Shown piece after piece: positions 170-45,751 of a stretch of 53,319 nucleotides of DNA. Source of the stretch: a virus. Within the stretch, counting starts at the first letter, position 1. Every line of letters begins with the position of its first letter. The stretch spans positions 1 through 53,319 of the IMG/VR virus record IMGVR_UViG_3300013212_000038; one strand, written 5' to 3'. Under the pieces are notes generated by a model. That model was not told where the DNA came from. It made no database searches and saw only the letters and a list, made by a program, of their open reading frames with translations. The position numbers and the translations under genes were made by a program.

Positions 170-496
170 ATGGAATGCGAGGTCTGGCAACTGCGCCGCG
201 ACGGCCTGAAGCTGCCGCAAGATGCACTCGACGGGCCGCACCGCGGCTGGCTACGGTTGGCGCGGTACAACATCGCAGGCGCGGTCACACTACACGCCGA
301 CCTGCGCCTCGGCGCCGGCCAAGGCGCACCATCGGCGCTACTTGGTCTCACCTCGGTCGAGGTCCGCCGCCTGGATGACCGCGGCATCCTGCTGTACGGG
401 CTCCAGGCCGAGCCGTGGGCCGGGCCGGCGGCCGTGCGGCATCGACAGGCCTGGTTCTGCCGGCCGATCAGGCCGGAGACAGCGCCGGAGCGCTGA
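170..496 (+). CDS. Hypothetical protein, 108 aa
   Basis: This rightward ORF lies at the left end, just after the terminator, and runs convergently into the acyltransferase gene with a 29-base antisense overlap. The translation has normal amino-acid composition (LRLARYNIAGAVTLHADLRL, then LTSVEVRRLDDRGILLYGLQ), suggesting beta-rich structure like small DUF proteins in Burkholderiales prophages. I cannot name a family. The ATG at 170 has only a weak ribosome site. It may be a lysogenic-conversion gene or a host gene at the junction. The competing minus-strand frame is arginine-rich shadow. Confidence 0.5.
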   Translation: MECEVWQLRRDGLKLPQDALDGPHRGWLRLARYNIAGAVTLHADLRLGAGQGAPSALLGLTSVEVRRLDDRGILLYGLQAEPWAGPAAVRHRQAWFCRPIRPETAPER

Positions 497-1490
497 GCCG
501 CCGGCCCAGCTTGATCATCGGCCGCTCGATCGCCGCCTCGGTGGCCAGCGCAACCAAGTAGCTCAGTAGGATGGTGAGGCCGATGCCCAGCACCGCCGAC
601 ACCGCTCGGCCACCAAGGCCGCCCACCAGCCACGGAGCAACGAAGAAGGCCGGGATGAAGTGCACGACGTACATGCTGAAGGACACCTGACCGACCCGGC
701 ACAACCAAGCCGGCGCGTCGCCGAGCTGCCTCAGCACGCGCAGCACCAGGGCCGCCACCAGCCCGAGCATGAGCGGGTTGCCGCTGCGCAGCTTCCAGAT
801 CAGGGCCCAGCAGGCCGCGACCAGCACCACAGCGACAAGATCCTGGCGCCAGCGCAGCGCGGGCCGCAGATAGACCCAGAAGCCCATGAGGAACACGGGG
901 AGCTGCAGAGCCAGGCTGTGATATCGAAAGCTCGCCTGGGCCTCGGTCCACGGCCAAGCCCAGCCGATGAAGGCAGCCCAGGCGCAGGCAAGCGCCGGCA
1001 GCGCCCAGTCCGCCGACCGGCCAAGCCTGAGCAGCGGCCCCACAACGAAGGGGAATACGCAATAGAACAGCACCTCGGTGCCGATGGACCACCCGCCCGG
1101 CACGACCGAGTTGTGAGCGTCATGGATGAGCCCGTGCACCAGGGCCGCATTCGAGACCAGATTTCCAGGCGTGTAGAGCTCAGCCTCGCCCCGCATAGAG
1201 AACCAGCCCCAGTAGAGCAGGATGCCGATGTAGTACATCGGCGCGATGCGGAAGAGCCGGCGCACCCAGAAGGCGCTGAGCCGGCTGTCGCGGTCCCAGG
1301 CCATGCACAGGGTCAGCGCTGAGGCGGCGAAGAAGAGCTGCACGCCGTACTGGCCCAGCATCGCGATGTCGGTCCAGGTGCGCCCGATCTCAACCCGGAA
1401 GGGCTGCGCGGCATGGCAGATGACCACCAGCAGGATGGCAACTCCGCGCGCCGCGTCGATGTAGTGGACTTTGTCGGCCTCTCTCCCCAT
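468..1490 (-). CDS. Acyltransferase 3 family membrane protein (probable O-antigen/exopolysaccharide O-acetyltransferase)
   Basis: This is a 340-residue polytopic membrane protein of the acyltransferase-3 (OafA/YrhL) family. The N-terminus carries the typical YIDAARGVAILLVVICHA stretch with its conserved Arg and His, followed by about ten hydrophobic segments; later motifs include FRIAPMYYIGILLYW and GWSIGTEVLFYCVFPF. The family transfers acetyl groups to cell-surface polysaccharides from the inner membrane. It sits at the extreme end of the late/lysis region, a usual place for lysogenic-conversion genes, so the likely role is seroconversion that blocks superinfection by related phages. The family call is firm; the substrate is unknown. 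Confidence 0.9.
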   Translation of the reverse strand: MGREADKVHYIDAARGVAILLVVICHAAQPFRVEIGRTWTDIAMLGQYGVQLFFAASALTLCMAWDRDSRLSAFWVRRLFRIAPMYYIGILLYWGWFSMRGEAELYTPGNLVSNAALVHGLIHDAHNSVVPGGWSIGTEVLFYCVFPFVVGPLLRLGRSADWALPALACAWAAFIGWAWPWTEAQASFRYHSLALQLPVFLMGFWVYLRPALRWRQDLVAVVLVAACWALIWKLRSGNPLMLGLVAALVLRVLRQLGDAPAWLCRVGQVSFSMYVVHFIPAFFVAPWLVGGLGGRAVSAVLGIGLTILLSYLVALATEAAIERPMIKLGRRLSAPALSPA

Positions 1491-7029: not shown

Positions 7030-7155
7030 CTATCTGCGCGGCCCGAACAGGAACAGGTGTCCGATGTGTAGCGCAGCCGCCAGCAGGCCCCAGCCGCCAA
7101 ACATGGCGACGATGACGACGTAGCCGACGGCCACCATGACCATGGCGAACTTCAT
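7030..7155 (-). CDS. Small transmembrane protein, 41 aa
   Basis: The ORF starts at an ATG that overlaps the stop of the giant gene as ATGA (7152-7155), so it is translationally coupled. It encodes almost only one or two membrane helices (MVAVGYVVIVAMFGGWGLLA, then HIGHLFLFGPRR). Small coupled membrane proteins in late operons may be virion or membrane-targeting peptides. No family recognised. Confidence 0.6.
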   Translation of the reverse strand: MKFAMVMVAVGYVVIVAMFGGWGLLAAALHIGHLFLFGPRR

Positions 7156-10100
7156 CGCAGGGCCTCGGAGACGGAGCCGCGCATCTCCTTGGGCGCGGTG
7201 CGCGTGAAGCGGTCGGCCTTGTCGGTCTGCATCTCCTTGAGCCGGCGCTTGACCTGGGAGCTGTTGATGGCGATGCGGCTCTCCGGGTTGGTGGCGTTCC
7301 AGTCCGCCAGCTGCTGGCGGGCCTCGTTGACCATGTCCACATCGCGCTCGCGCAGGCCCTGCGCCCACTGGTCGGCAATGCTGGACTCCACCACGCGCGC
7401 CAGCTTTATGCGCTTGTCCTGCTCGCTGATCTTGGCGTTCTCCCGCGCGAGCTCGGCCGGCTGGAAGCCGATCAGCTTCATGACGGCGTCGATCTCGTCC
7501 GTGGCCATGACCCGGCGGCCCTTGCCGTCGCGCGCCTCGCCGTCGATCCACATCGTGGCGGCCTTGCCGACGTTCTGCAGGGCGCCTGGCAGCATGCCCA
7601 GTGCCGCGTCGCCGAGGTTGCCGTCCAGCGCCTTGCGGCCGGCGTCCTTGTATTGCTTCACCATCGCGCCGACCGGCCCGGCAAGCTCGAGCACGTCGCC
7701 GCTCACGTCGGTGTTGGACTTCATGAGCATGCCGGTACCCGGCAGCAGGTTGCCCATGCCCATGCGCATCGACACGTCCAGCGGGATGCCTGGCAGCGCC
7801 GACAGGCCGCGCATGACGACGTCGGCGCCGGTGTCGCCCATGCCCAGCGTGCGGCCCAGGAACTCGCGCTTCCAGCCCTTGGCCGAGGTATCGAAACCCA
7901 GGGCCTGCATGACGGTGTCGGCCAGGTCGTTGACATCCTCCGCGAACGGCAGGCCTTCGGAGCCGCCGGCCATGAAGAGCAGTGCCATGGCGAAGAGCAC
8001 CGCCTTTCGGCCCTCGGTGCGCTCGCGGCTGCCGGGCTCGCCAGCGTTCCACATGCGCTTGATCCACTCCAGGTAGTGGATGCTGTACTGCTTGAAGGTC
8101 AGCGCCGTGGCGCCGATGGGGTTGCGGGCCCAGTTGGGCGCATTGCCCTTGTTGTAGAGGCCCTGGGTCTCGACAACAGCCTCATGCGCGAACGCGAAGG
8201 GGTCGGCCATGCCCTCGGCCTTGGCGGTCGCATAGGCGGCCAGGAAGGTCACGCGGCGGTTGAACTGCTCGGCCACGGAGAACGGCGCACCCCACAGGAA
8301 GGCGGCACGCTTGAGCACGGGGTTCTTGCCCCAGCTGGCCATGGCCTCCGCCGTGAGGTGGTGGATCTCCTGCGGGCTCACGATGCCATCCTTCTCGGCG
8401 CGCTTCAGCGCCTCGGCCGTTTCGGTGTCGGTGATCTTCCCACCGGCCGCCTGGCGGGCGCTGGCCATCAATCGGGCCGCGGCCTTGACCGGGCCGCCCC
8501 ACTGGCTGAGCCAGGGCAGCGTCATCATCACCGGCTGCGTGACGTTGACCAGCGCCGAGGCCACCGAGCCGCCGATGAAGTGCGCGAACATCAGCCCGCG
8601 CACGACGCCCGCGGTGTCGGTCGGGTTCTGCACGGCCTCGATGAGCTTGACGCCCTCGTCCTTGATGTCGCCAGCGCGGATCTGCTCGGCGGCCTCCTTG
8701 GCCTGCGGCATGTTCATGGCGCCGGCGGCCAGGCGGGCGTTGCTGGTCACGAATGACGCCAGCACGCGGGTGACCTCGGAGCTGAAACCCTCGGTGCCCT
8801 TGCGCTTGATCAGGCGCTTGAGCGCGCTGCGGTTGTTCTTCGTCAGCCGCAGCCACTCCTGGTAGACGGCCGACTGCTCGGCGCCGATGGCATCGGCGAA
8901 CATCTCCAGCGACTCCACGGGGATGCCGCTGAAGAGCTTGAAGGCCTCCTGCGACATCGTGCCCTGCTCCACCCGGCCGGCGAACTGATCATCGGCGCCC
9001 AGGTCACGCGCCATGCGGTTCGCCTCGGCCCGGGTCTCGTAGAGGCCGAAGAACTCCTGCTGCCCCTCGGCACCCTTGACCGAGACGAAGTACTTGCCGA
9101 AGCGCATCAGCGGCGCGTACCCCCTGCCCTTCAGCTGGTCGACGCGGTCGAACTTCTCGACGATGTCGGCCAGGGTGCTCTGAAGCTGCTCGCGCTTGTT
9201 GGCGTCGTCCTCGGCCTTGATGCGGTCCTGCAGGTGCGCTTCCACGGCGGCCCGGAAGCCGGCGCGGTTGCCCATCGCCGCCGCGCGGATCTCCGGCGTC
9301 GCTTCGCCGAGCAGGCGCAGCGCGTCAGCCGAAGCCACCTGGTCAAGCGACTCGTTCACGGCGGCCCGGAACTGCTGGTAGACGCCCACCTGGGCCTCAT
9401 TCAGCCCGAACAGCTGCTGGAGTTCGGCCGGGCTGAACACCACGCCGGGCTGCAGGTACTCCTGGGCGTAGCGGTTGCGGATGGCGCCCTCGTAGATGTC
9501 CAGCGGCGTGGCCTTCCAGCGCTTCAGCTCGGTCTCGGTGACCTTGCCGTCCCGGAACAACACCCGCTCCTTCTCCGCCGTGCTCATCTGCTCGGCCTGG
9601 GCCTGCAGGTCGTCGAACTTCACCAGCTTGCCGCCCTGGCGCGACCAATTCAGCGTGCCCTCGAAGATCGGCGCGGCCACGGCCTTCTGGTCGGCGGTGC
9701 TGAGCCCGCGCTTGGCAGCCGCGAACACGTCGCGCACGCTCTCCAGCTTGGGCAGGATGTCCGGCGCCTGGTCGGCGGCCTCGTTGGCCAGCATCGACGT
9801 GTCCTCGATGTACTGCTGGACGTGGCGGAACACCTTGCCGTACTCGGGGTGGGCCTTGGCCTTGTCGTACTGGGTGCCCAGCGTCTTCTGCCACCAGTTC
9901 ACCTGCTCGCCCGCGGACTTGAAGCGGTCGGCCAGCGCATCGCGAATGGCCTGCTGGTTGATACCGGCCAGCGGGCTCGTGCGGCTGAACTGCGGCTCGG
10001 CCCGGGAGGCCGCGGCCAGGTCCACCCCGGTGGTCACCTGCGGCACATCCAGGCCGTCGGCCTCACCCTGGGCCGCTGGGTCCGTGTTGATGCCAGCCCG

Positions 10101-13100
10101 CGCCACGCCAGCGACGAAGGTCTCGATCTGGGCGTCCGTGAACTGCATCTGCAGGCCCAGGGCCTGGGCCATGGACCGCAGCCAGTTGCGGATCATGCTG
10201 GCCAGCCGCTTCCAGCCGCGCAGGCTCTGCGCCTTGCCTTCGCCAGCCATGTCGGCCAGCGCTTCCTCGATGGCCTCGTCTCGGCTGATCTTGAGCTCGC
10301 GCGCCACCAGGTCGGCGCGCTCGCGCAGGCGCTGGTTCGATGCGTACATCTGGCGCAGCAGCTGACGGCTCTGGTCGCCGAACATCGCCCCGAGGCCGCG
10401 GTGGAAGGCCTCGTGCATCACCACGAAGTGCAGTTCGTCGGGCGAGGTGATGTTGTCGGTGAAGACGTAGATTTGGTCCGTGCTCGGGAAGTAGGCCCCG
10501 CGCACGTCGTCGCCGAAGCCGCTGAGCTTGGCCCGCAGCTGCGCCGGCAGGTCGTCGAAGTTGCGGGCCACGTTGACCCGGTGCAGGCCTGCGGCCTCGT
10601 ACTGGCGCGCCGCGATCTCGGCCAGGCGGATGGGGTAGCCCTTGCCGCTGGAGCCGCGCAGCAGCTCCACCAGGCGGTTGGCCTTCGGGCCTACTTCGCT
10701 TTCTTGGCCGCTGCCAGGTTCGCCTTCTGCCGCGCGTCCGGCTTCCAGTTCTCCAGCAGGTGCCGATCGCGCGCCCGCACTTCCTCGCGCGTCAGCCCCT
10801 TGCGCTGCTCGGTAGCTTTCCCAGTCGGTTGTTGCGTTGCCATAAGTGTCCTTGTAGCCGGCGCCCATCTTCTGCCAGAAGGCATCGGACTGGTCCAGGA
10901 TGTCGATGATTCTCACCGGGCCGTCGGCGTTCGCCAAGATGGCGGCCATGACCTTGCGGCCGGCGCCGGCGCGCTTGTCGGTCATCTCGATGTCGTGCAC
11001 TGCGTCGATCTGCCCGTCTGGGTTCACTTCCAGGTAGGCCTCGCCCAGCACGCCGCCGTCGTTGTCGGTGATCAGGAACTTGTGCGCGGTGTTGCCCTCG
11101 CGGACATGCACCGTGTGGCCCAGCGGCAGCGAGTTCTCAGCGAACTCGTCCTGGGTGTCCATCTTGAGCAGCGAGATCAGCGACACGTCACGGCCGTAGT
11201 ACTCGGGGCCCTCGGTGTTCTGCTCGGTGTTCACCCAGCGCAAGGCGGCGCGGTCAGCGTCAGCGCGACGGCTGAAGATGGCCACGCCGCGTTCGGTATC
11301 GCGCGTCTGGATGGCGTCGACCAGTTGCTGGAAGGCCTGCTGCATCTGCAGGCGCTCTTCGCCGGCGGGGAACGGAATGGACTTGCCGGTCTCCTCGCTC
11401 CACTTGCGCCAGCCCTCGCTGTCGACAAGGCCACTCAGGTACAGGCTTTCACGCTGGCGGTCGCGCAGCGCATCCATGGCGAAGGTCTCGAACGCGCGGG
11501 CGAACTTCTCCCACGGTGTGGACCAGTAGCCGTCGCCAGACTGCTTCTTGGCGTCCATGGCGTCGGACGCCCGGGCATAGTTCGTCGGCACCTGGGGGAT
11601 GTGCGAGGCCATGAACCGCGCTTCGTCGGCAAGGTCAGCCAGCCGGTAGGCGATGGTGAAGGCCTGGGCGCCGATGGCATTGCCCGGCGTCAAGTTGGCC
11701 GCGCGCATCATCTCGGCCAAGTTTGTCTCGACGTCGGTGTCCTGGGGCTCGCCGAGGTCTCCACGCTTGAGCTTTTCAGCCACGGCATCCAGGGCCGCCT
11801 TGTCGGCGCCGCGGTTGCCCTTGAACTCCTCGATCCAGCGGTCCAGCCGGCGCTGGTTCAGCGCGCGCTGATCGGCGATGTATTGCTTCGCCTCAGCCTC
11901 GGTCATCGGTCGCGTGTTGATCGTCTTCATGACAGCACGCATGGCCGCCATGAGATCGGGGCGCACGCCGCCAGCGTTTCCGATGCTCTCGGCCACGGCC
12001 GACAGGTACGGCCGCTTGCTCATAGACGCGGCCTGACCGTGCTGGGTGGCGAGGTAGTGGTCCAGCGCGTGGCCGAACTCGTGCGCCAGCGCGCCTGCGC
12101 CGGAATCGCGGGTGATGTTGATCTCGTTCACGCCCGGCACGAAGTGCGCCAGCGCCTTGCCTGAGCCCTGCGCACCAATGGCCACCCCCAGCGTACCGTC
12201 AAGACTCATCGCCTTCGGCGGCACGCCGAGAACGTCGGCCAGGTCGTTGAAGGCGTCGAAGACGTGGTTCAGGTGCAACTGCGCCACGTTCTGCTTGGCC
12301 TTGACGTACTCGCCAAGGTTCACACCGCGAAAGCCGAAGTGCTGCATCACTTCTTCAGCAGTCACGTCACGGCCGTTGCGCCAGTCTGGGCCGGTTCGCG
12401 TCGCAGCGCCGAGCTCAAGGCCGCGGCTCGGCGGCAGAGTCTCACGCTTGCGCACGACAAGCGATCGCGCGAAGGCCTCGGCAAGTTCCTGAGACGCATA
12501 GCCACCATCCTGGCCGCCCTTGGCGAGCCGCCAGCGCGAGCCCTTCTCGTAGACATAGAAGCGCTGCTGCGGCTCACCGGTGCGCTCGGCCTCTGGGATA
12601 TCGTTGTCTCGTGTCTCAGCCGCCCGGACCTCGTAGGACTTCTGCCACGCCTCTTGCTTCGCGGGGAAGCCATCGGCCAGCAGGTCCTTCACCTTCATCA
12701 GCTCGCGAGAACTGAACTGCAGGGCCTGCACCAGCGAATTGCCGCCAGCCATCATGGCGCGGCGGTTGTTCTCCTTGCCCTGCTCGCTTCCACGGTCGAA
12801 TGGGCTCGGGCGGCCGTACACCGCGCGTGCATCGACAGGCACCGGGAAGACCTTGCCGAAGACGTTCTCTGACCTGAGCATCTTCCATAGATCGCCTGAG
12901 CCGCCCAGCTTCTCCACGCGATCAAGTTCCGCGGTCAGGGCTTCGCGCACCTTGTTGACCGTCTCGATATAGGCCTGCAGGTCTGCATCGGTCGGCACGC
13001 TGCGGGTAACGGGAGCGACGGCGATCTTGTCGTAGACCACCTTCAGCATCGCCGCTTTCCAGGCGGGCGCACCGTCCGCGACCATCTTGGCGTAGTCGGG

Positions 13101-16043
13101 GCGCGGCCAGACGTTCGTCTTCACGACCTGCGCCACCTTGAGCGTGTCGTTCATGCCGGACACGTCATCCCAGGCAAGGCCCTTGAGCTTGCCGCGGCGG
13201 TTGCGGATCAGCTCCTCGCCAGCATCCGTGAGCCGGTCGCTCTTCTTGGACTGCGAGGTCTCCTTCGCAAGGGGCGTGCCGGTCTGCTTCGGATCTTTAA
13301 CCCAGGCCTTGAACTCCTCCACTGGCATGGCCGTGATGGACTTCAGTCCCTTCCAGCCCTTGGCATAGTTCGCCGCGTAGGCGTCTCGGGCCTCCTGCTC
13401 GTTGTCGAAGCCGATCAGCGCCTTGTGCTCGTCGAACTTGCCCGTGGACGGGTCCACCTGGTCAACCACGAACACCGGCCCGCCAAAGTCCTCCGGCGTG
13501 CCCGGCTTCACGAAGACGTCGACATGGTCCTTGTCCGCGCCCACCGTGCCTCGGATGTAGCCGTAGTGGTGCTGCAGGGTGTTCTGCCAGGCCTTTCCGT
13601 CGCGGTCGATGCCACTGCGCGTGCTGCCCCGAGGGTTCTCGATGCTGATGTCCAGACCGGCCACGCGGATGCGGCCCACCTTGTAATTGCCGGCCTCCTT
13701 CTGGGCCTGGGTCGGCTCAGGCAGCTCGTTGGCCGGACTGGTGGCGGCCTCATTCGCTGCCTGGTCAATCAATGCACCGTCGCTTCCGGGTCCATCGTTG
13801 CGAGATGCCAGGCGTTGCTCATCACCTGGTGCAGGTGCGGCGGCAGCGTCACGAAGTCCGCCGACCGGAACCACGCGGGCAGCTCCTCGGCCTGCTCCCA
13901 CGTCAGCAGCCCCTCGTCCTCCAGATCCTGCAGCGTCACGCTCTCCACCGCTCACCTCCTCCACGGTGAAACCGCCCTCCACGGGCACGACCTTGCCGCC
14001 GACCTTGTTGGCCTCCACCGTCGCCTTGGTGCGGCTGCGGTAGACCGTCGGCACTTCGAGCCCACCAGCAGCGGGCACGGGCGCCTGAGCGGCGGCATCG
14101 GCCAGTCGCTGCTCGGGGGACAGTGGGTCCTGGCCCTGCGACTGCATCACGCGGATGACGTCGCGACGGGTGATGCGCCCCGCCCTGAAGTCCTGAACGA
14201 AAGCCCGGGCCTGCGGGGTGGCCACCTGTCGCATGCGCTCGACGTAGTCCAGCACCGGGTCGCTGCTCTCCACCGGCACGGGCGCCAGGTCGATCGGGTC
14301 GGTGCGGCGGCGCTCGGGCATCTGCACGGGCGGCGCAGGGCGCTTCGGGCGGCCCTCGCCGTAGACGGCCGAAGCCCGGCGGCCCTGCGGCTCGATCGTG
14401 CTGGCCTCGGCCGCTGCCGCAGCGCGGGCTTCCTGGCCCCGCTGCACCGCTTGGCCGGTGTTGATGGCGTCCAGGCGGGTCTCGGGCGTGACCACGCCGG
14501 TGCGGTCGACGCGCATGGTGCCGGTGCGGCGGGTGTCGGCTTCCAGCTGAGGCACCGCCGGCGCAGGCTGGCCGGTCAGTGCTTCCCGCCCGAAGGCCTG
14601 CGGCGCGATACCAGGCGCTTGCGCCGGGCTGCCGGTGGGCTGCAGCAGCGCGCGGCCCAGGATGGTCTCGGCCAGGGTCACGATGCGCTCGCGCGTGGCC
14701 GCGGGCATGCCGTTGGCACCATCGGGGCGGCCGGCCTGCTGGGTGTAGTAGAGGATGGTGTTCAGCGCGTCATCGCCCAGCCGTGCCCGGACCGTCTCGC
14801 GGACCTCGGGCGTGCGCAGCTGCTCGTTCAGCGTTTCCAGGCGATCCAGGAGCGGCGGCGTGTCAATGAACTGGGCTGAGGCCTGGGCGGCTGGCGCAGT
14901 CGCAGCGGCCGAGCGTTGCACGGGCACGGGCTGAGCGGGACCCGCATCCCGCGGGCCGCCGAACTTGATGCCCTGCTGGTCCGCCTGCATCTGCCGTTCC
15001 ATGGCCGTGAGGGCCCGGTCCTCTTGGTCAGGGGACAGACCGGCAGCCGCGGGCGCGCCGATGTCGAGCGGCGCATTGGCCAGCTCCTGGGCCGAGGCGA
15101 TCATGTCGCCCACGTTGTCGGCCGTGGCGAGCTTGTTCATGGACTCTTCGGCAGTGGGCACCACCGGCGCCGTCGGCCGGCTGCTGTGGCCGAACGGGGC
15201 CGCGCCGGCACCCATCGCGCCACCGGCCAGGGCGCCCATGGCCGCGGCGTTGCCCACGCCTTCATCCCAGGGCTTGCCCAGCGCCACGTTCTGCGCGATC
15301 TGCTCCTGGGCCGACTGGGGCAGCTCTTGCAGCACCCCCTCCGTCGCGAAGCCCTCCATCAGCGCCCGAGCCAGGGACTTCTGAGCCTTGGGCCCGGCCT
15401 GCTGAACGCCGGCCACCAGCTGGTCAATGTCGCCGATGCCCAGACGGTTGGCGATCTTGCCCGCCACGCCGCCGATCAGACCCGTGAGCACGCCAGAAGC
15501 GCCCGCCAGCGCGGACTGCTGGCCCGTCAGCAGGCCGTTGGCTGTCTCCTGGCGCACCTGCTCGGCGGTCTGGCCGGCCGACACCGCGCCCTCACCGATG
15601 CCCGCAGCCACGGCACCACCAATGCGCGGCAGCAGGGTAAGCGCGCCGCGCGCCACGGCGCCGGCCGGGAGCAGCGAAGGCGCCGACTCCACCGCCGACT
15701 GCAGGATGGTGGACGGGTTGCGCACCGCGGCCACCGTGGTGTCCACGAACCCTTGCGCCTGCTGCACCTCGCGGTTGGCAGCCTGCTGCTCGGGAGAGTA
15801 GAGCTCGTCCAGCGACGCCTTGGCGTCCTTGGGTCGGAAGCCGAGGCTCTCCGCGGCCTTGCCGACATAGCCGCCTGTCGGGATGTCGGCCAGGCCCACC
15901 AGCGCCTCGGGAACGCCAATGACGCCCTTCATGAGCGATACACCGGTGTCGCCCAGCGCCCGCCGCGCGAGACCGGTCTTCTGAGGCGGCGCGGGTGCGT
16001 CGCTGGCCAGGTCGATGCCGTGAAGGTCGAAGAGAGTGGGCAT
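7152..16043 (-). CDS. Giant polyvalent virion/ejection protein, 2963 aa (InPase-like, zincin-like, GNAT-like and LPD38-like regions)
   Basis: This one continuous frame takes a sixth of the window. An Ala/Gly-rich hydrophobic N-terminal region (~30-230) is followed by Pro/Ala/Arg-rich linkers. At ~785-915 there is an inorganic-pyrophosphatase-like module of large polyvalent proteins (AGNYKVGRIRVAGLDISIEN, KDHVDVFVKPG, VFVVDQVDPSTGKFDEHKAL). At ~1320 lies a zincin motif ALAHEFGHALDHYL within an LPD1-like region. At ~1670-1705 there is a GNAT-like R-x-G-x-G (DKRAGAGRKVMAAIL). A second zincin-like HEAFH sits at ~1876 with EEALADMAG after it. The C-terminal ~800 residues resemble LPD38. Such proteins are packaged and injected with the DNA to act early in infection. 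Two small genes are nested in it. Confidence 0.85.
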   Translation of the reverse strand: MPTLFDLHGIDLASDAPAPPQKTGLARRALGDTGVSLMKGVIGVPEALVGLADIPTGGYVGKAAESLGFRPKDAKASLDELYSPEQQAANREVQQAQGFVDTTVAAVRNPSTILQSAVESAPSLLPAGAVARGALTLLPRIGGAVAAGIGEGAVSAGQTAEQVRQETANGLLTGQQSALAGASGVLTGLIGGVAGKIANRLGIGDIDQLVAGVQQAGPKAQKSLARALMEGFATEGVLQELPQSAQEQIAQNVALGKPWDEGVGNAAAMGALAGGAMGAGAAPFGHSSRPTAPVVPTAEESMNKLATADNVGDMIASAQELANAPLDIGAPAAAGLSPDQEDRALTAMERQMQADQQGIKFGGPRDAGPAQPVPVQRSAAATAPAAQASAQFIDTPPLLDRLETLNEQLRTPEVRETVRARLGDDALNTILYYTQQAGRPDGANGMPAATRERIVTLAETILGRALLQPTGSPAQAPGIAPQAFGREALTGQPAPAVPQLEADTRRTGTMRVDRTGVVTPETRLDAINTGQAVQRGQEARAAAAAEASTIEPQGRRASAVYGEGRPKRPAPPVQMPERRRTDPIDLAPVPVESSDPVLDYVERMRQVATPQARAFVQDFRAGRITRRDVIRVMQSQGQDPLSPEQRLADAAAQAPVPAAGGLEVPTVYRSRTKATVEANKVGGKVVPVEGGFTVEEVSGGERDAAGSGGRGAADVGAGRGAARVVPVGGLRDAAAAPAPGDEQRLASRNDGPGSDGALIDQAANEAATSPANELPEPTQAQKEAGNYKVGRIRVAGLDISIENPRGSTRSGIDRDGKAWQNTLQHHYGYIRGTVGADKDHVDVFVKPGTPEDFGGPVFVVDQVDPSTGKFDEHKALIGFDNEQEARDAYAANYAKGWKGLKSITAMPVEEFKAWVKDPKQTGTPLAKETSQSKKSDRLTDAGEELIRNRRGKLKGLAWDDVSGMNDTLKVAQVVKTNVWPRPDYAKMVADGAPAWKAAMLKVVYDKIAVAPVTRSVPTDADLQAYIETVNKVREALTAELDRVEKLGGSGDLWKMLRSENVFGKVFPVPVDARAVYGRPSPFDRGSEQGKENNRRAMMAGGNSLVQALQFSSRELMKVKDLLADGFPAKQEAWQKSYEVRAAETRDNDIPEAERTGEPQQRFYVYEKGSRWRLAKGGQDGGYASQELAEAFARSLVVRKRETLPPSRGLELGAATRTGPDWRNGRDVTAEEVMQHFGFRGVNLGEYVKAKQNVAQLHLNHVFDAFNDLADVLGVPPKAMSLDGTLGVAIGAQGSGKALAHFVPGVNEINITRDSGAGALAHEFGHALDHYLATQHGQAASMSKRPYLSAVAESIGNAGGVRPDLMAAMRAVMKTINTRPMTEAEAKQYIADQRALNQRRLDRWIEEFKGNRGADKAALDAVAEKLKRGDLGEPQDTDVETNLAEMMRAANLTPGNAIGAQAFTIAYRLADLADEARFMASHIPQVPTNYARASDAMDAKKQSGDGYWSTPWEKFARAFETFAMDALRDRQRESLYLSGLVDSEGWRKWSEETGKSIPFPAGEERLQMQQAFQQLVDAIQTRDTERGVAIFSRRADADRAALRWVNTEQNTEGPEYYGRDVSLISLLKMDTQDEFAENSLPLGHTVHVREGNTAHKFLITDNDGGVLGEAYLEVNPDGQIDAVHDIEMTDKRAGAGRKVMAAILANADGPVRIIDILDQSDAFWQKMGAGYKDTYGNATTDWESYRAAQGADARGSAGARSAPAGELEAGRAAEGEPGSGQESEVGPKANRLVELLRGSSGKGYPIRLAEIAARQYEAAGLHRVNVARNFDDLPAQLRAKLSGFGDDVRGAYFPSTDQIYVFTDNITSPDELHFVVMHEAFHRGLGAMFGDQSRQLLRQMYASNQRLRERADLVARELKISRDEAIEEALADMAGEGKAQSLRGWKRLASMIRNWLRSMAQALGLQMQFTDAQIETFVAGVARAGINTDPAAQGEADGLDVPQVTTGVDLAAASRAEPQFSRTSPLAGINQQAIRDALADRFKSAGEQVNWWQKTLGTQYDKAKAHPEYGKVFRHVQQYIEDTSMLANEAADQAPDILPKLESVRDVFAAAKRGLSTADQKAVAAPIFEGTLNWSRQGGKLVKFDDLQAQAEQMSTAEKERVLFRDGKVTETELKRWKATPLDIYEGAIRNRYAQEYLQPGVVFSPAELQQLFGLNEAQVGVYQQFRAAVNESLDQVASADALRLLGEATPEIRAAAMGNRAGFRAAVEAHLQDRIKAEDDANKREQLQSTLADIVEKFDRVDQLKGRGYAPLMRFGKYFVSVKGAEGQQEFFGLYETRAEANRMARDLGADDQFAGRVEQGTMSQEAFKLFSGIPVESLEMFADAIGAEQSAVYQEWLRLTKNNRSALKRLIKRKGTEGFSSEVTRVLASFVTSNARLAAGAMNMPQAKEAAEQIRAGDIKDEGVKLIEAVQNPTDTAGVVRGLMFAHFIGGSVASALVNVTQPVMMTLPWLSQWGGPVKAAARLMASARQAAGGKITDTETAEALKRAEKDGIVSPQEIHHLTAEAMASWGKNPVLKRAAFLWGAPFSVAEQFNRRVTFLAAYATAKAEGMADPFAFAHEAVVETQGLYNKGNAPNWARNPIGATALTFKQYSIHYLEWIKRMWNAGEPGSRERTEGRKAVLFAMALLFMAGGSEGLPFAEDVNDLADTVMQALGFDTSAKGWKREFLGRTLGMGDTGADVVMRGLSALPGIPLDVSMRMGMGNLLPGTGMLMKSNTDVSGDVLELAGPVGAMVKQYKDAGRKALDGNLGDAALGMLPGALQNVGKAATMWIDGEARDGKGRRVMATDEIDAVMKLIGFQPAELARENAKISEQDKRIKLARVVESSIADQWAQGLRERDVDMVNEARQQLADWNATNPESRIAINSSQVKRRLKEMQTDKADRFTRTAPKEMRGSVSEALR
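10691..10843 (-). CDS. Nested small basic protein, 50 aa, inside the giant gene
   Basis: This frame is out of phase with the giant gene and starts at an ATG at 10843 preceded five bases upstream by AAGGA. It encodes a charged, natural-looking peptide (MATQQPTGKATEQRKGLTRE ... LENWKPDARQKANLAAAKKA). In this stretch the giant frame is low-complexity Gly/Glu/Ala/Arg linker, as expected if selection acts mainly on the nested frame. It could alternatively be the relic of a separate gene joined by a frame change. No family recognised. Confidence 0.55.
   Translation of the reverse strand: MATQQPTGKATEQRKGLTREEVRARDRHLLENWKPDARQKANLAAAKKAK
13769..13948 (-). CDS. Nested small acidic protein, 59 aa, inside the giant gene
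   Basis: A GTG at 13948 is preceded by an almost ideal ribosome site (GGAGGAGGTGAGC). The out-of-phase frame reads VESVTLQDLEDEGLLTWEQA, then ELPAWFRSADFVTLPPHLHQ and ends EATVH before TGA. The composition is that of a real folded small protein. The overlapping giant frame here is Gly/Ala/Arg linker (RDAAGSGGRGAADVGAGRGA). It lies between the Pro/Arg-rich linker and the InPase-like module. Function unknown. Confidence 0.6.
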   Translation of the reverse strand: MESVTLQDLEDEGLLTWEQAEELPAWFRSADFVTLPPHLHQVMSNAWHLATMDPEATVH

Positions 16044-42897: not shown

Positions 42898-43104
42898 TCA
42901 GGCCGCCTTGGCGAGCTTGCGGCGCGTCGCCTTCAGGTGGTCGCGGAGCCGAACGAGGGTTGCGTATCCCGGGTTCTCGATCCGGCCATTTGCGAACTTG
43001 GACAGCCACGAGTAGCTGACGCCTGCGCCAGCTGCAACGGCCTGCCAATCTCCCTTGCGCTCCTTCAAGGCTGCAAGGACTTCGGCATCAAGTGAGGTGC
43101 TCAT
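42898..43104 (-). CDS. cro: Cro-like HTH regulator, 68 aa
   Basis: A short helix-turn-helix protein (DWQAVAAGAGVSYSWLSKFA, NGRIENPGYATLVRLRDHLK) of the lambda Cro/repressor superfamily, divergent from the CI-like gene. It is the first gene of the leftward early operon, so by analogy it represses the lysogeny promoter by binding the operators just upstream. Confidence 0.8.
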   Translation of the reverse strand: MSTSLDAEVLAALKERKGDWQAVAAGAGVSYSWLSKFANGRIENPGYATLVRLRDHLKATRRKLAKAA

Positions 43105-43177: not shown

Positions 43178-43594
43178 ATGAGCGACCTAGATATCAATGA
43201 AGTGCTGGCCCGGAACCTTCGGGCGACCATGAAGGGGAAGGGCGTCACGCAGACGGCACTGGGCGCCAAGAGCGGCGTCAAGCAGAACACGATCAGCCTC
43301 TACATGGCTCCAGAGAAGCGCAAGCAAGGGGCCTCGGGCAAGGCGCCGAGCGGAAAGCTCACCGAGGTGGCACTGATGGCCAAGGCACTAGACATGGAGG
43401 CTTGGCAGCTCCTGCTCCCAGAAGGTGCGACACCCCCACCCATGGATTACCGGGCAGCTGCTGAAGAGGTGGCCAGGAAGGTGCCTGACCCCACCAACCG
43501 CGACCTCTTCCTGAACTTCCTGAAGGCCGTGGATGGCTACATTGAGGAGCGCCAACGGATTGCAGTGTCAATAGCCGACACGCTGATTCGGTGA
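43178..43594 (+). CDS. CI-like lysogeny repressor, 138 aa
   Basis: From the ATG at 43178 (MSDLDINEVLARNLRATMKG) the protein has an XRE-type HTH (VTQTALGAKSGVKQNTISLY) and a long helical C-terminus (EEVARKVPDPTNRDLFLNFL). It lacks the Ser/Lys autoprotease domain of lambda CI, so induction may differ from RecA-driven cleavage. It faces the Cro-like gene over two operators and probably binds the same sites at 45.3 kb. Confidence 0.78.
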   Translation: MSDLDINEVLARNLRATMKGKGVTQTALGAKSGVKQNTISLYMAPEKRKQGASGKAPSGKLTEVALMAKALDMEAWQLLLPEGATPPPMDYRAAAEEVARKVPDPTNRDLFLNFLKAVDGYIEERQRIAVSIADTLIR

Positions 43595-43650
43595 ATGTTC
43601 ACACTGGCCGATCCTGCGACTGAACGATCATTTCTGACCGGGTGCAAGAA

Positions 43651-43676
43651 TTGATACACGTAAACGTTTGTATCAA
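43651..43676. promoter_or_regulatory. 26-bp palindrome before the moron cassette
   Basis: Perfect 8-base arms TTGATACA and TGTATCAA around ten bases (CGTAAACGTT), ending two bases before the ATG at 43679. It is unrelated to the TAGCAA operators. It could be an operator of another regulator, or an mRNA hairpin. The gene has no separate ribosome site, so leaderless translation is possible. Confidence 0.6.
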
Positions 43677-43678
43677 TC

Positions 43679-43969
43679 ATGCAGGAACTGCACGGGCAGA
43701 ACGTCCACGTCGGCAGCATCCACGGACCGGTCTTGATTGCAGTCACGGACGACCTGGTGGATGTCCCAGAGGACAAAGCCAGGGACTGCCCGCAGTGCGG
43801 GGCGCGCACATGGGCCGGAAGCCGGTTCTGCCGGGCCTGCCACTGGGACTTCGACAGGGCAGCGCTCAAGCGGTTTCACGCTGTCAAACTGCTAGCTCTG
43901 TCGGCGTCGCTCAACGTGGTGTCCGCTGCGCTCCTTCTTTGGCAGGTAGCGCCATCATTTCTCCGCTAA
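43679..43969 (+). CDS. Zinc-ribbon membrane protein, 96 aa
   Basis: A beta-like N-terminus (NVHVGSIHGPVLIAVTDDLV), a zinc ribbon (CPQCGARTWAGSRFCRAC) and one transmembrane helix near the end (LLALSASLNVVSAALLLWQV). First gene of a three-gene rightward cassette after the repressor. It shares the motif HGPVL-x-x-VT with the next gene. Role unknown; lysogen expression is inferred. Confidence 0.6.
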   Translation: MQELHGQNVHVGSIHGPVLIAVTDDLVDVPEDKARDCPQCGARTWAGSRFCRACHWDFDRAALKRFHAVKLLALSASLNVVSAALLLWQVAPSFLR

Positions 43970-44040
43970 GGCCGAAAGGGTTATCCCTGAATCACCTCGT
44001 TCTAGGGGCTGTCAGGCTCACGCCCTCAGAGGAGGTTTGC

Positions 44041-44241
44041 ATGAAGGAATTCGAGCGGCGGCCAGACTTGGCAGCCCTGTGGAAGCACATCTCAACACCG
44101 GTCGATGAGCCGGAGGTGCAGAAGTCGCCGGCCGTCTCCATCAACGCCGTGCACGGCCCAGTGCTGTCCATCGTCACCAACCAGCCGGTCCAGATAGCGG
44201 AGCTGTGGGCCCAGGCATGTGCGCAGGGGAAGCGGCCATGA
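44041..44241 (+). CDS. Small protein sharing an HGPVL motif with its neighbour, 66 aa
   Basis: GAGGAGG precedes the ATG at 44041. The helical start (MKEFERRPDLAALWKHISTP) is followed by VSINAVHGPVLSIVTNQPVQ, which closely matches the N-terminus of the preceding protein. It overlaps the lipoprotein gene as ATGA. The shared element suggests a common binding function. Confidence 0.58.
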   Translation: MKEFERRPDLAALWKHISTPVDEPEVQKSPAVSINAVHGPVLSIVTNQPVQIAELWAQACAQGKRP

Positions 44242-45242
44242 GGGCCACTGCTGCGATAGCGTTGTTGCTCGCCGCCGGCGGCTGTGCCAACGTTGGCAAT
44301 GGCGGCCACATGGAAGCGGGCTCTTTCACGCCGCGGAACATCGCGGCACATCCGATGCCTGAAAGGCTGACCATCGTCATCACGCGCGAGCAGACCGTTT
44401 TCTCACGCATTTCGCATGTTCCCTGGGATGCCTATCCCCTGGCGCTCAACGGGAAGATGGTCGCCTTCCTGCCAGTTGGATCGCACATAGTCCTTGTGGT
44501 GGAACCAGGGACGCACATACTCAAGTGGTCTCGAAAGGCCAACGGCATCCTCGTCGGGAAAGATGAAGAGTACGCCGTTGCTGGCCCGGCAGGAGCAATC
44601 CGGTACGTGGCTTTGAAGGCGAAGATCACCGACGTGGAGATGACGGCTGTACCGGAAGATGCTGGTCGTTCTGCCCTGGCTTCAACGGCTCCGGCGCGCC
44701 TGCTGCACAACGGTACGACATGGGACATATTCAAAGGTCGCTCGAAGGCGGCAAACACTGCCGCATGGGACGCGCTGCGGGCGGCCATGCCAGATGGTGA
44801 AACGGTCAATTCGGCGCTTGAGGCTGTGGGGGCAATAGCACTCATTGGGCTGCACGTCGCGGCAGCAACTCAGTCCAACACGCCATCGCTTGCATCTGTA
44901 CGGCCGAGTGGCAGCGGAACAACTCGAGAGCAAACGTCCTCGGCGCTTCGCATGGACACCCTCACCAGCCCTCAGCGGACCAACCCCTTCAGTTACGGCA
45001 AGAGCGAGACGAGCGAACGGCTCAAGAGCGCCAACGCGGCCTGGGTCCGCGACTATCGAACTGGCACGACGTACACGATTGAAGACGATTCCGTGCGGGG
45101 ATCAGACGGATCACGCTTCAAGATTGTCGGCAACTCCCTGATCTCGGAGACGGGCGTGCGCTACCAGATCACAGGGAACTCCCTCCGCGCTCCCGATGGT
45201 CGCACTTGCAGGCGCGTGTTGGACACCGTGCACTGCGACTAG
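44238..45242 (+). CDS. Lipoprotein, 334 aa (DUF2846-like region)
   Basis: I start at the ATG at 44238 (MRATAAIALLLAAGGCANVG), which gives a clear signal peptide and lipobox ending AGGC. A domain like DUF2846 follows (ALNGKMVAFLPVGSHIVLVV, EPGTHILKWSRKANGILVGK). The remainder contains a hydrophobic helix (NSALEAVGAIALIGLHVAAA) and a C-terminal repeat-like region (SRFKIVGNSLISETGVRYQI). Likely attached to the envelope in lysogens; superinfection exclusion is possible but not shown. Confidence 0.7.
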   Translation: MRATAAIALLLAAGGCANVGNGGHMEAGSFTPRNIAAHPMPERLTIVITREQTVFSRISHVPWDAYPLALNGKMVAFLPVGSHIVLVVEPGTHILKWSRKANGILVGKDEEYAVAGPAGAIRYVALKAKITDVEMTAVPEDAGRSALASTAPARLLHNGTTWDIFKGRSKAANTAAWDALRAAMPDGETVNSALEAVGAIALIGLHVAAATQSNTPSLASVRPSGSGTTREQTSSALRMDTLTSPQRTNPFSYGKSETSERLKSANAAWVRDYRTGTTYTIEDDSVRGSDGSRFKIVGNSLISETGVRYQITGNSLRAPDGRTCRRVLDTVHCD

Positions 45243-45261
45243 GCGCAAAGCGCAAGAACCC

Positions 45262-45286
45262 AAGCCCGCCGCGCGCGGGCTTTTTC
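45262..45286 (+). terminator. Rho-independent terminator of the cassette
   Basis: AAGCCCGC and GCGGGCTT form a perfect 8-bp stem with a five-base loop, followed by TTTTT. Closes the lysogeny/moron unit 20 bases after the lipoprotein stop. Confidence 0.88.
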
Positions 45287-45314
45287 TCGACCGCGTATAG
45301 GTGCAAACGCGACT

Positions 45315-45330
45315 TAGCAATCTTTTGCTT
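45315..45330. promoter_or_regulatory. Phage operator copy 3
   Basis: TAGCAATCTTTTGCTT, consensus TAGCAA-N4-TTGCTT. Overlaps the -35 box of the rightward early promoter. Confidence 0.82.
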
Positions 45331-45357
45331 GGCAGATTAGCAATGTGTTGCTAGAGT
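45329..45357 (+). promoter_or_regulatory. Rightward early promoter (PL-like)
   Basis: TTGGCA (45329-45334), 17 bases, TAGAGT (45352-45357). Operators overlap both boxes, so the repressor should shut it. It faces the 45392 gene with a GGAGAG ribosome site. Confidence 0.75.
45338..45353. promoter_or_regulatory. Phage operator copy 4
   Basis: TAGCAATGTGTTGCTA, perfect arms, centre 23 bp from copy 3, the same spacing as in the immunity region. Overlaps the -10 box. Confidence 0.85.
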
Positions 45358-45391: not shown

Positions 45392-45751
45392 ATGCAGACC
45401 CTGACACCCAGCGCGCGAGCGCTGCTTGAACTGGACCGCCAGGAGGTGGAGCGCCAGATCAGCCTCACGCTGCACCAGCGCGTCGAGTACGACGGCCAGG
45501 CGGTGGTGTGCCGCGCCGAGGCTGCTGCGCTGGCAGCTGAAGGCAAGCACCAGCAGGCCCAGGGCTGGATGGCCGGCGCCATCCGCTATCGGTCGCGCGT
45601 CATTGCGCTGGACGTTGAGCTGTCCGGCCTGCGTGCGCGGCGCGATGCGCTGATGGCGCGACTCAATGGCGTGGAGCCCGAGGCAGCGCCGGTGGTGCTG
45701 GGCCGCGAGCAGGTCGCAGCGATGGACGAGACGGCAGGGGCACATGCATGA
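45392..45751 (+). CDS. Hypothetical first gene of the rightward early operon, 119 aa
   Basis: A long helical coiled-coil protein (SARALLELDRQEVERQISLT; VIALDVELSGLRARRDALMA). As the first gene after the repressor-controlled promoter it is expressed at once after infection. No antiterminator N-like arginine motif is obvious. Overlaps the next gene by ATGA. Confidence 0.65.
   Translation: MQTLTPSARALLELDRQEVERQISLTLHQRVEYDGQAVVCRAEAAALAAEGKHQQAQGWMAGAIRYRSRVIALDVELSGLRARRDALMARLNGVEPEAAPVVLGREQVAAMDETAGAHA

What the first reader, a model, noticed from the sequence alone, without database searches (positions are those of the whole stretch)
43651..45286. Self-contained lysogen cassette with its own palindrome and terminator
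Between repressor and early promoter lie a 26-bp palindrome (arms TTGATACA/TGTATCAA), a zinc-ribbon membrane protein, a 66-aa protein, a large lipoprotein and a perfect terminator. The operator-like palindrome is unlike the phage operators. Envelope-targeted products expressed beside the repressor suggest an exclusion or conversion system that I cannot match to a known one.
Basis: partly seen in the sequence, partly recalled or inferred. Interest (0 to 1): 0.62.

Follow-up and report, generated by a model that had tools for sequence, protein, structure and literature searches.

The report
Prophage rex-locus zinc-ribbon–lipoprotein cassette
A dormant virus, probably of a soil or water bacterium, carries next to the gene that keeps it dormant a small set of genes for cell-envelope proteins that recurs in related viruses and most likely lets the infected cell shut out competing viruses; the location is famous from phage lambda, but this gene set is undescribed in the libraries searched.

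Summary
Between a phage repressor (43178-43594) and the early operon lie a 28-bp palindrome, a zinc-ribbon/one-TM protein (ORF1), a 66-aa protein (ORF2), a 334-aa lipoprotein (ORF3) and a strong terminator. Inverted copies of the phage operator flank repressor plus cassette: the layout of lambda's OR-cI-rexAB-OL region.

The cassette recurs. ORF1 has relatives directly downstream of a prophage repressor in five other elements (L002, L101, L103, Mu-like L093 and L102). The window, L101 and L103 keep the set ZnR-TM, ~68 aa, lipoprotein (L101's lipoprotein gene is inverted). L002 swaps the third gene. L093 adds a TIR protein of defence candidate PDC-S35. Among 12 related phages with duplicated operators the slot is empty in two and carries an exported or membrane protein in ten.

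Best explanation: a lysogeny-expressed exclusion cassette that works like rexAB or an exclusion lipoprotein (inferred, untested). The palindrome is better read as an RNA hairpin over ORF1's start than as an operator. Most novel lead: in three of six operons ORF1 shares a short motif with another protein of the same operon, and the motif differs between operons, suggesting matched docking.

New variant of a known kind.

The parts
42898..43104 (-). Cro-like HTH gene, divergent from the repressor
   Evidence: PHROG transcriptional repressor 5e-11; homologues in L017 and L057
43116..43154 (.). Operator region OR (TAGCAATAGATTGCTA; AAGCAACACTTTGCTA)
   Evidence: Sequence; inverted near-copy at 45338
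43178..43594 (+). Repressor (HTH N-terminus, conserved C-terminal domain)
   Evidence: PHROG transcriptional repressor 1.2e-5; C-terminal half conserved in L002 while the HTH half differs
43650..43677 (+). Palindrome / RNA hairpin ending 1 nt before the ORF1 start codon
   Evidence: 42-nt fold -12.5 kcal/mol, z -4.3; hairpin in the same place in L002
43679..43969 (+). ORF1: 96-aa zinc-ribbon, single-TM protein with N-terminal V-x-V-x-x-I-x-G-P-V-L motif
   Evidence: homologues L002, L092/L093, L101, L102, L103
44041..44241 (+). ORF2: 66-aa protein; predicted N-terminal helix, linker, motif shared with ORF1
   Evidence: 55% identical in L002; motif shared with ORF1, z about 10; size and position analogues in L101 and L103
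44238..45242 (+). ORF3: 334-aa predicted lipoprotein (C16-Ala, so likely outer membrane)
   Evidence: Lipobox and ATGA overlap; no homologue found; unrelated lipoproteins sit in the same place in relatives
45262..45287 (+). Intrinsic terminator closing the repressor-cassette unit
   Evidence: near-identical terminators in L002 and L103
45315..45353 (.). Operator region OL (TAGCAATCTTTTGCT; TAGCAATGTGTTGCTA)
45329..45357 (+). Early promoter-like site inside OL
   Evidence: TTGGCA-17-TAGAGT with extended -10
45392..45751 (+). First gene of the early operon (right boundary of the slot)
   Evidence: L005 has a similar gene right after its OL

Best explanation
This is an accessory cassette in the repressor-to-early-operon slot of a lambda-type immunity region, transcribed with the repressor in lysogens and stopped by its own terminator before the early promoter. 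Shown by sequence: the slot lies between inverted copies of the operator; ORF1 (zinc-ribbon membrane protein) sits at the same place behind unrelated repressors in six elements; ORF2 follows it in four; the third position is a variable, usually lipidated, exported protein. Inferred: the products protect the lysogen from competing phages at the envelope. ORF3, as an outer-membrane lipoprotein, would block adsorption or DNA entry. ORF1, anchored in the inner membrane with its zinc ribbon in the cytoplasm, together with ORF2 would form an inner-membrane complex that supports or triggers exclusion. The hairpin over the ORF1 start would set the level of ORF1 relative to repressor (inferred).
For: Position and operators. 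Terminator before OL in window, L002, L017 and L103. Recurrence of ORF1 directly downstream of a repressor: L002, L092/L093, L101, L102, L103; the three best-scoring of seven hits are all repressor-adjacent. Conserved order with lipoprotein: window, L103 (same 4-nt ATGA overlap), L101 (lipoprotein gene on the other strand). Purifying selection on ORF1 and ORF2. Variable third gene (L002 versus window). A TIR protein of defence candidate PDC-S35 (E 2e-115) in the same operon of L093. Slot survey: empty in L005 and L023, exported or membrane product in the ten occupied slots; by an automated gene count 11/21 slot genes versus 11/50 early genes are exported, one-sided p 0.013. Precedents at this locus: rexAB and bstA (PMC8585504); exclusion lipoproteins in lysogeny modules: Ltp (PMC3952083).
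Against: No phenotype, expression or localisation data. ORF3 has no relative, so its function rests on a lipobox and neighbours. The slot also tolerates general lysogenic-conversion genes, so exclusion is not the only option. Only one of six operons holds a recognised defence family. The L092 and L102 ORF1 relatives are remote, and L102 lacks a clear TM segment. Gene calling in the survey was heuristic.
Confidence: 0.55

Rival explanations
1. ORF1 and ORF2 are accessories of the repressor (membrane tether, induction sensor or anti-repressor partner), not exclusion factors; the lipoprotein is an unrelated passenger.
For: ORF1 is always adjacent to the repressor, translationally overlapping it in L092 and L103, and stays when the lipoprotein is replaced (L002). 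In L102 the repressor's C-terminal tail and the ORF1 N-terminus share a motif (z 6.5-9).
Against: No motif shared between repressor and ORF1 in the window, L002, L101 or L103. Most phages with this layout have repressors without ORF1.
Confidence: 0.2
2. General lysogenic conversion: envelope proteins that change host surface traits such as stress survival, predation or biofilm, with no role in phage exclusion.
For: Lipoproteins of several unrelated kinds occupy the slot; the phage also carries an acyltransferase of a conversion type at 468-1490.
Against: The tight link to the repressor, the PDC-S35 neighbour and the known occupants of this locus (rexAB, bstA) favour phage competition.
Confidence: 0.2
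3. The palindrome is a DNA element: either an operator for a cassette-specific regulator or a self-immunity site like aba of BstA, which overlaps the start of bstA.
For: Perfect AT-rich dyad unlike the phage operators, placed at the ORF1 start; aba precedent (PMC8585504).
Against: In L002 the dyad keeps complementarity through a paired change (C-G to G-C) but the arms are 14 instead of 12 nt apart and enclose a GAAA-capped stem; two hairpins there fold at -39.8 kcal/mol, z -5.7. aba carries direct, not inverted, repeats. No regulator gene lies in the cassette.
Confidence: 0.2

Closest known systems
Lambda rexAB (between cI and OL/N)
   Same: Same locus between repressor and early operator, same orientation as the repressor, terminator before the early promoter, multi-gene with a membrane component.
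   Different: No sequence relation found: no Rex family among Pfam, PHROG, NCBIfam or PADLOC hits. Products here are a zinc-ribbon TM protein, a 66-aa protein and a lipoprotein.
BstA with aba self-immunity element (PMC8585504)
   Same: Downstream of the repressor in diverse Gram-negative prophages; a special DNA/RNA element overlaps the start of the first gene.
   Different: BstA is a single cytoplasmic abortive-infection protein; none here. aba has direct CCCGCC repeats, here an AT-rich hairpin.
Ltp of phage TP-J34 and related exclusion lipoproteins (PMC3952083)
   Same: Lipoprotein encoded in the lysogeny module and transcribed in the prophage state.
   Different: Ltp is Gram-positive and plasma-membrane anchored; ORF3 has no detectable relation and is predicted to sit in the outer membrane.
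Outer-membrane exclusion lipoproteins Cor (phi80-type) and Llp (T5)
   Same: Small phage lipoproteins of the outer membrane that block receptor use (own knowledge; not tested).
   Different: No similarity search hit; ORF3 is several times larger.

Membership tests
Rex-type exclusion (lambda rexAB) | Location between repressor and early operator, co-directional with repressor, ended by terminator | tested here: met
Rex-type exclusion (lambda rexAB) | Sequence homology to RexA or RexB | tested here: not met
   No Rex family hit in Pfam, PHROGs, NCBIfam or PADLOC
Rex-type exclusion (lambda rexAB) | Exclusion phenotype against superinfecting phages | not testable with these tools
   Needs plating assays
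BstA/aba defence | BstA protein homologue | tested here: not met
   No BstA or KilA-N hit among the ORFs
BstA/aba defence | Self-immunity element overlapping the start of the gene | tested here: inconclusive
   Palindrome abuts the ORF1 start but fits an RNA hairpin better
Phage exclusion lipoprotein | Lipobox signal peptide | tested here: met
   MRATAAIALLLAAGGC; read from sequence, simple pattern; no SignalP run
Phage exclusion lipoprotein | Homology to Ltp, Cor, Llp or another characterised exclusion lipoprotein | tested here: not met
   No family hit above cut-off (PHROG 890 'lipoprotein' only E 0.096); no tblastn hit in 50,697 phages
ABC-3C middle component 6 | Pfam MC6 match | tested here: not met
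   ORF2 E 0.19, below cut-off; homologue L002 does not match

The most novel reading that the evidence does not exclude
ORF1-type zinc-ribbon proteins are hubs of prophage exclusion operons that recognise their own partner through an operon-specific homotypic motif, comparable in logic to paired amyloid-signalling motifs: the same short segment is found in ORF1 and in another protein of the same operon (ORF2 in the window, the ORF6C-like protein in L093, the repressor tail in L102), while the segment itself differs between operons. Infection would be sensed by the small protein or the repressor and passed to the membrane protein by this contact.
Probability: 0.15. Interest if true: 0.8.

Novelty: new variant of a known kind. 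Interest (0 to 1): 0.5.

Why it matters
The interval between repressor and early operator is where prophages keep genes they want on in the lysogen. Lambda's rexAB sits there and its mechanism is still unsettled. A second, unrelated gene set that recurs at this spot in probable Burkholderiales phages of both lambda-type and Mu-type gives a fresh, testable handle on what this locus is for. It also shows that slot occupants in such phages are mostly exported proteins and flags several unannotated lipoproteins as exclusion candidates.

Tried and rejected
ORF3: no relatives by tblastn in phages, back-translated scans of IMG/VR and GTDB genomes or PDB; single-sequence fold unusable (pLDDT 37), so no fold search was run. 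A DUF2846-like N-terminal domain was considered from resemblance to the L018 slot lipoprotein, but the match is weak (z 2.9, p 0.02; BLAST E 1.5) and not claimed. ORF2 as ABC-3C MC6 or DUF6931: below cut-offs and not reproduced in L002. Palindrome as sigma-70 promoter: 9/12 match with the -10 on the start codon, rejected. Palindrome as phage operator: no relation to TAGCAAT boxes, rejected. Palindrome as dif/att core (11-6-11 layout): considered, no support, not pursued. A hairpin after the repressor is not general: most relatives have no gap between repressor and first slot gene. Generic zinc-ribbon hits (L086, L088-L091, L104-L106) were inspected or judged by open-frame size and set aside. 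ORF1-ORF2 motif sharing is not seen in L002 (z 0.4), L101 or L103. In one search the L101 and L103 repressors were read out of frame; one search repeats those six pairs correctly with no change in outcome.

Full report
What is there. The window is a 53,319-base IMG/VR virus record. ORF1 has a four-cysteine zinc ribbon (Pfam DZR 6.7e-4, below cut-off) and one C-terminal membrane helix. ORF3 begins MRATAAIALLLAAGGC, a lipobox; Ala at +2 predicts the outer membrane by the usual Lol rule (own knowledge). No product matches a curated family in Pfam, PHROGs, NCBIfam or PADLOC above threshold.

Layout. A Cro-like gene (42898-43104, minus) and the repressor (43178-43594, plus) diverge across TAGCAAT...TTGCTA boxes; an inverted near-copy of the same boxes lies at 45315-45353, in front of the early operon. 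Repressor plus cassette are therefore bracketed by OR and OL, as lambda cI-rexA-rexB is. The terminator just before OL closes the unit. Local GC drops to 58-64% against 67-70% in the following early genes, as expected of an acquired accessory block.

Relatives of the cassette. In IMG/VR one contig, L002, encodes ORF1 (58% identity) and ORF2 (55%) in the same order after a repressor whose DNA-binding half and operators (ACCGCTAGCGGTA) are different, while the repressor's C-terminal half is conserved. Its third gene is not a lipoprotein but another zinc-ribbon protein with a hydrophobic segment. dN/dS between window and L002 is 0.24 (ORF1) and 0.27 (ORF2), so both are translated and constrained. 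A profile search of 399 genomes of the order of a Variovorax genome (Burkholderiales) gave L092, and of 401 genomes of its family gave L101, L102 and L103; the three best-scoring of the seven hits sit directly behind a prophage repressor with a divergent small HTH gene. L103 reproduces the window's anatomy: OR, repressor, 78-aa ZnR-TM (ATGA overlap with the repressor), 68-aa protein, lipoprotein (again a 4-nt ATGA overlap), terminator, OL. L101 has ZnR-TM, a 69-aa protein and then a lipoprotein on the opposite strand before OL. L092/L093 and L102/L109 are Mu-like transposable prophages (transposase genes), each with repressor, ZnR protein and lipoprotein; L093 also encodes a TIR protein that PADLOC calls PDC-S35 (E 2e-115). 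hhalign of the L092 protein against the window/L002 pair gives probability 94 and E 9e-8. A six-member profile on 399 genomes found no further clear cases, so the family is uncommon in the sample.

The slot in general. From 82 loci sharing a downstream early gene I identified repressors by similarity and looked for operator copies. Twelve phages, counting the window and L002, have inverted or near-identical operator copies on both sides of repressor plus slot. The slot is empty in L005 and L023 and holds an exported or membrane protein in the other ten. Lipoproteins are commonest there and in loci whose operators were not resolved: window, L012, L014, L018, L019, L029, L076, probably L032. They are of several unrelated kinds; L014 and L076 resemble each other by eye, and the Mu-like L102 shares its lipoprotein with lambda-type L029 (E 1e-18). 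With one automated rule, 11 of 21 slot genes against 11 of 50 early genes are exported (one-sided p 0.013). That rule missed several clear cases, gene calls were heuristic, and the test is small; the per-phage statement is by manual reading.

The palindrome. It abuts the ORF1 start and folds at -12.5 kcal/mol over 42 nt (z -4.3), with the start codon at the base of the stem. At the same place L002 has TGATAG/CTATCA around a GAAA-capped inner stem, ending next to its start codon, preceded by a second strong hairpin (106 nt, -39.8 kcal/mol, z -5.7). The arm keeps complementarity through a paired change and the spacer differs by 2 nt. Two sequences are weak evidence, but RNA pairing explains this better than a dimeric operator. 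L017 also has a perfect hairpin after its repressor; other relatives have no room for one. Neither ORF1 has a Shine-Dalgarno. The hairpin may tune ORF1 translation or protect the upstream repressor message (inference).

Operon-matched motifs. Window ORF1 residues 9-39 and ORF2 residues 32-62 align at 42% identity (two-sequence E 4e-6; z about 10). In L093 ORF1 and the next gene begin with QEFKGPVDNVAGRDI and QEFKGTVDNVAGRDI; 10 of the 14 identical residues use different codons, so the match is maintained by selection and not by recent copying. In L102 the repressor's C-terminal tail and the ORF1 N-terminus share YGxVGQ...HG..I (z 6.5-9). Among 33 within-operon pairs three reach z of 6 or more; among 170 cross-operon control pairs one does, and that one is a zinc ribbon against a zinc ribbon (Fisher p 0.014; 0.004 without zinc-ribbon pairs). 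L002, L101 and L103 do not show it. This is a lead. Short motifs shared between products of neighbouring genes are known for bacterial amyloid-signalling pairs (PMC8086366); whether these segments form amyloid or any contact is untested.

Interpretation. The cI-N interval of lambdoid phages is an acknowledged hotspot that hosts rexAB and bstA (PMC8585504), and lysogeny modules elsewhere carry exclusion lipoproteins (PMC3952083). Position, recurrence, exchangeable third gene, envelope targeting and one defence-gene neighbour make superinfection exclusion the most likely role (0.55). Rivals are repressor accessory and general conversion. None is shown experimentally. The cassette works, by anatomy, like a rex-locus exclusion module; it is not a member of the RexAB, BstA or known exclusion-lipoprotein families, since homology was tested and not found.

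Limits. The host is unknown; Burkholderiales is inferred from relatives. No integrase was recognised among the genes tested, though not all were. Genome sampling was about 1,150 distinct genomes. Lipoprotein and TM calls are simple-rule predictions.

Noticed in passing
window 468-1490 (-): Membrane O-acyltransferase (Acyl_transf_3 7.5e-27; PHROG O-acetyltransferase 4e-32) near the lysozyme gene: a likely second, surface-modifying conversion gene.
   Followed up: partly
L093 7951-8802: TIR-domain protein, PADLOC PDC-S35 (E 2e-115), at the end of the repressor operon of a Mu-like prophage in a Burkholderiales genome, behind an ORF1 relative and a lipoprotein.
   Followed up: partly
L005 5054-5150; L023 3875-4061: Empty slots: repressor followed directly by operator and early operon, natural controls for an optional cassette.
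   Followed up: partly
L102 1647-2321 and L029 4282-4971: Homologous slot lipoproteins (BLAST E 1e-18) shared between a Mu-like prophage and a lambda-type phage.
   Followed up: partly
L014 2574-3017 and L076 3261-3701: Another shared slot lipoprotein type (SSERTYRxxL...CFPI...IESNYxPEA), in a metagenomic phage and in Variovorax ginsengisoli; no hit in annotated phages.
   Followed up: partly
L018 1994-2404: Slot ORF with a signal-peptide-like start and a WQVDHIDPLKC segment resembling an HNH nuclease, in Rhodoferax sp. TH121: possibly a periplasmic nuclease beside the repressor.
   Followed up: no
L107 1225-1683 (-): A second ORF1-like zinc-ribbon protein with its own N-terminal motif (EFIGRVGAVF...) about 10 kb from L102, next to a GemA-like small gene.
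   Followed up: no
window 7152-16043 (-): 2,963-aa open reading frame in the structural region, not annotated here.
   Followed up: no
L017 1375-1405: Perfect 12-bp hairpin directly after the repressor (GTCACCTGTCAGAGTTGACAGGTGAC) before a different slot cassette (79-aa protein plus secreted 105-aa protein).
   Followed up: partly
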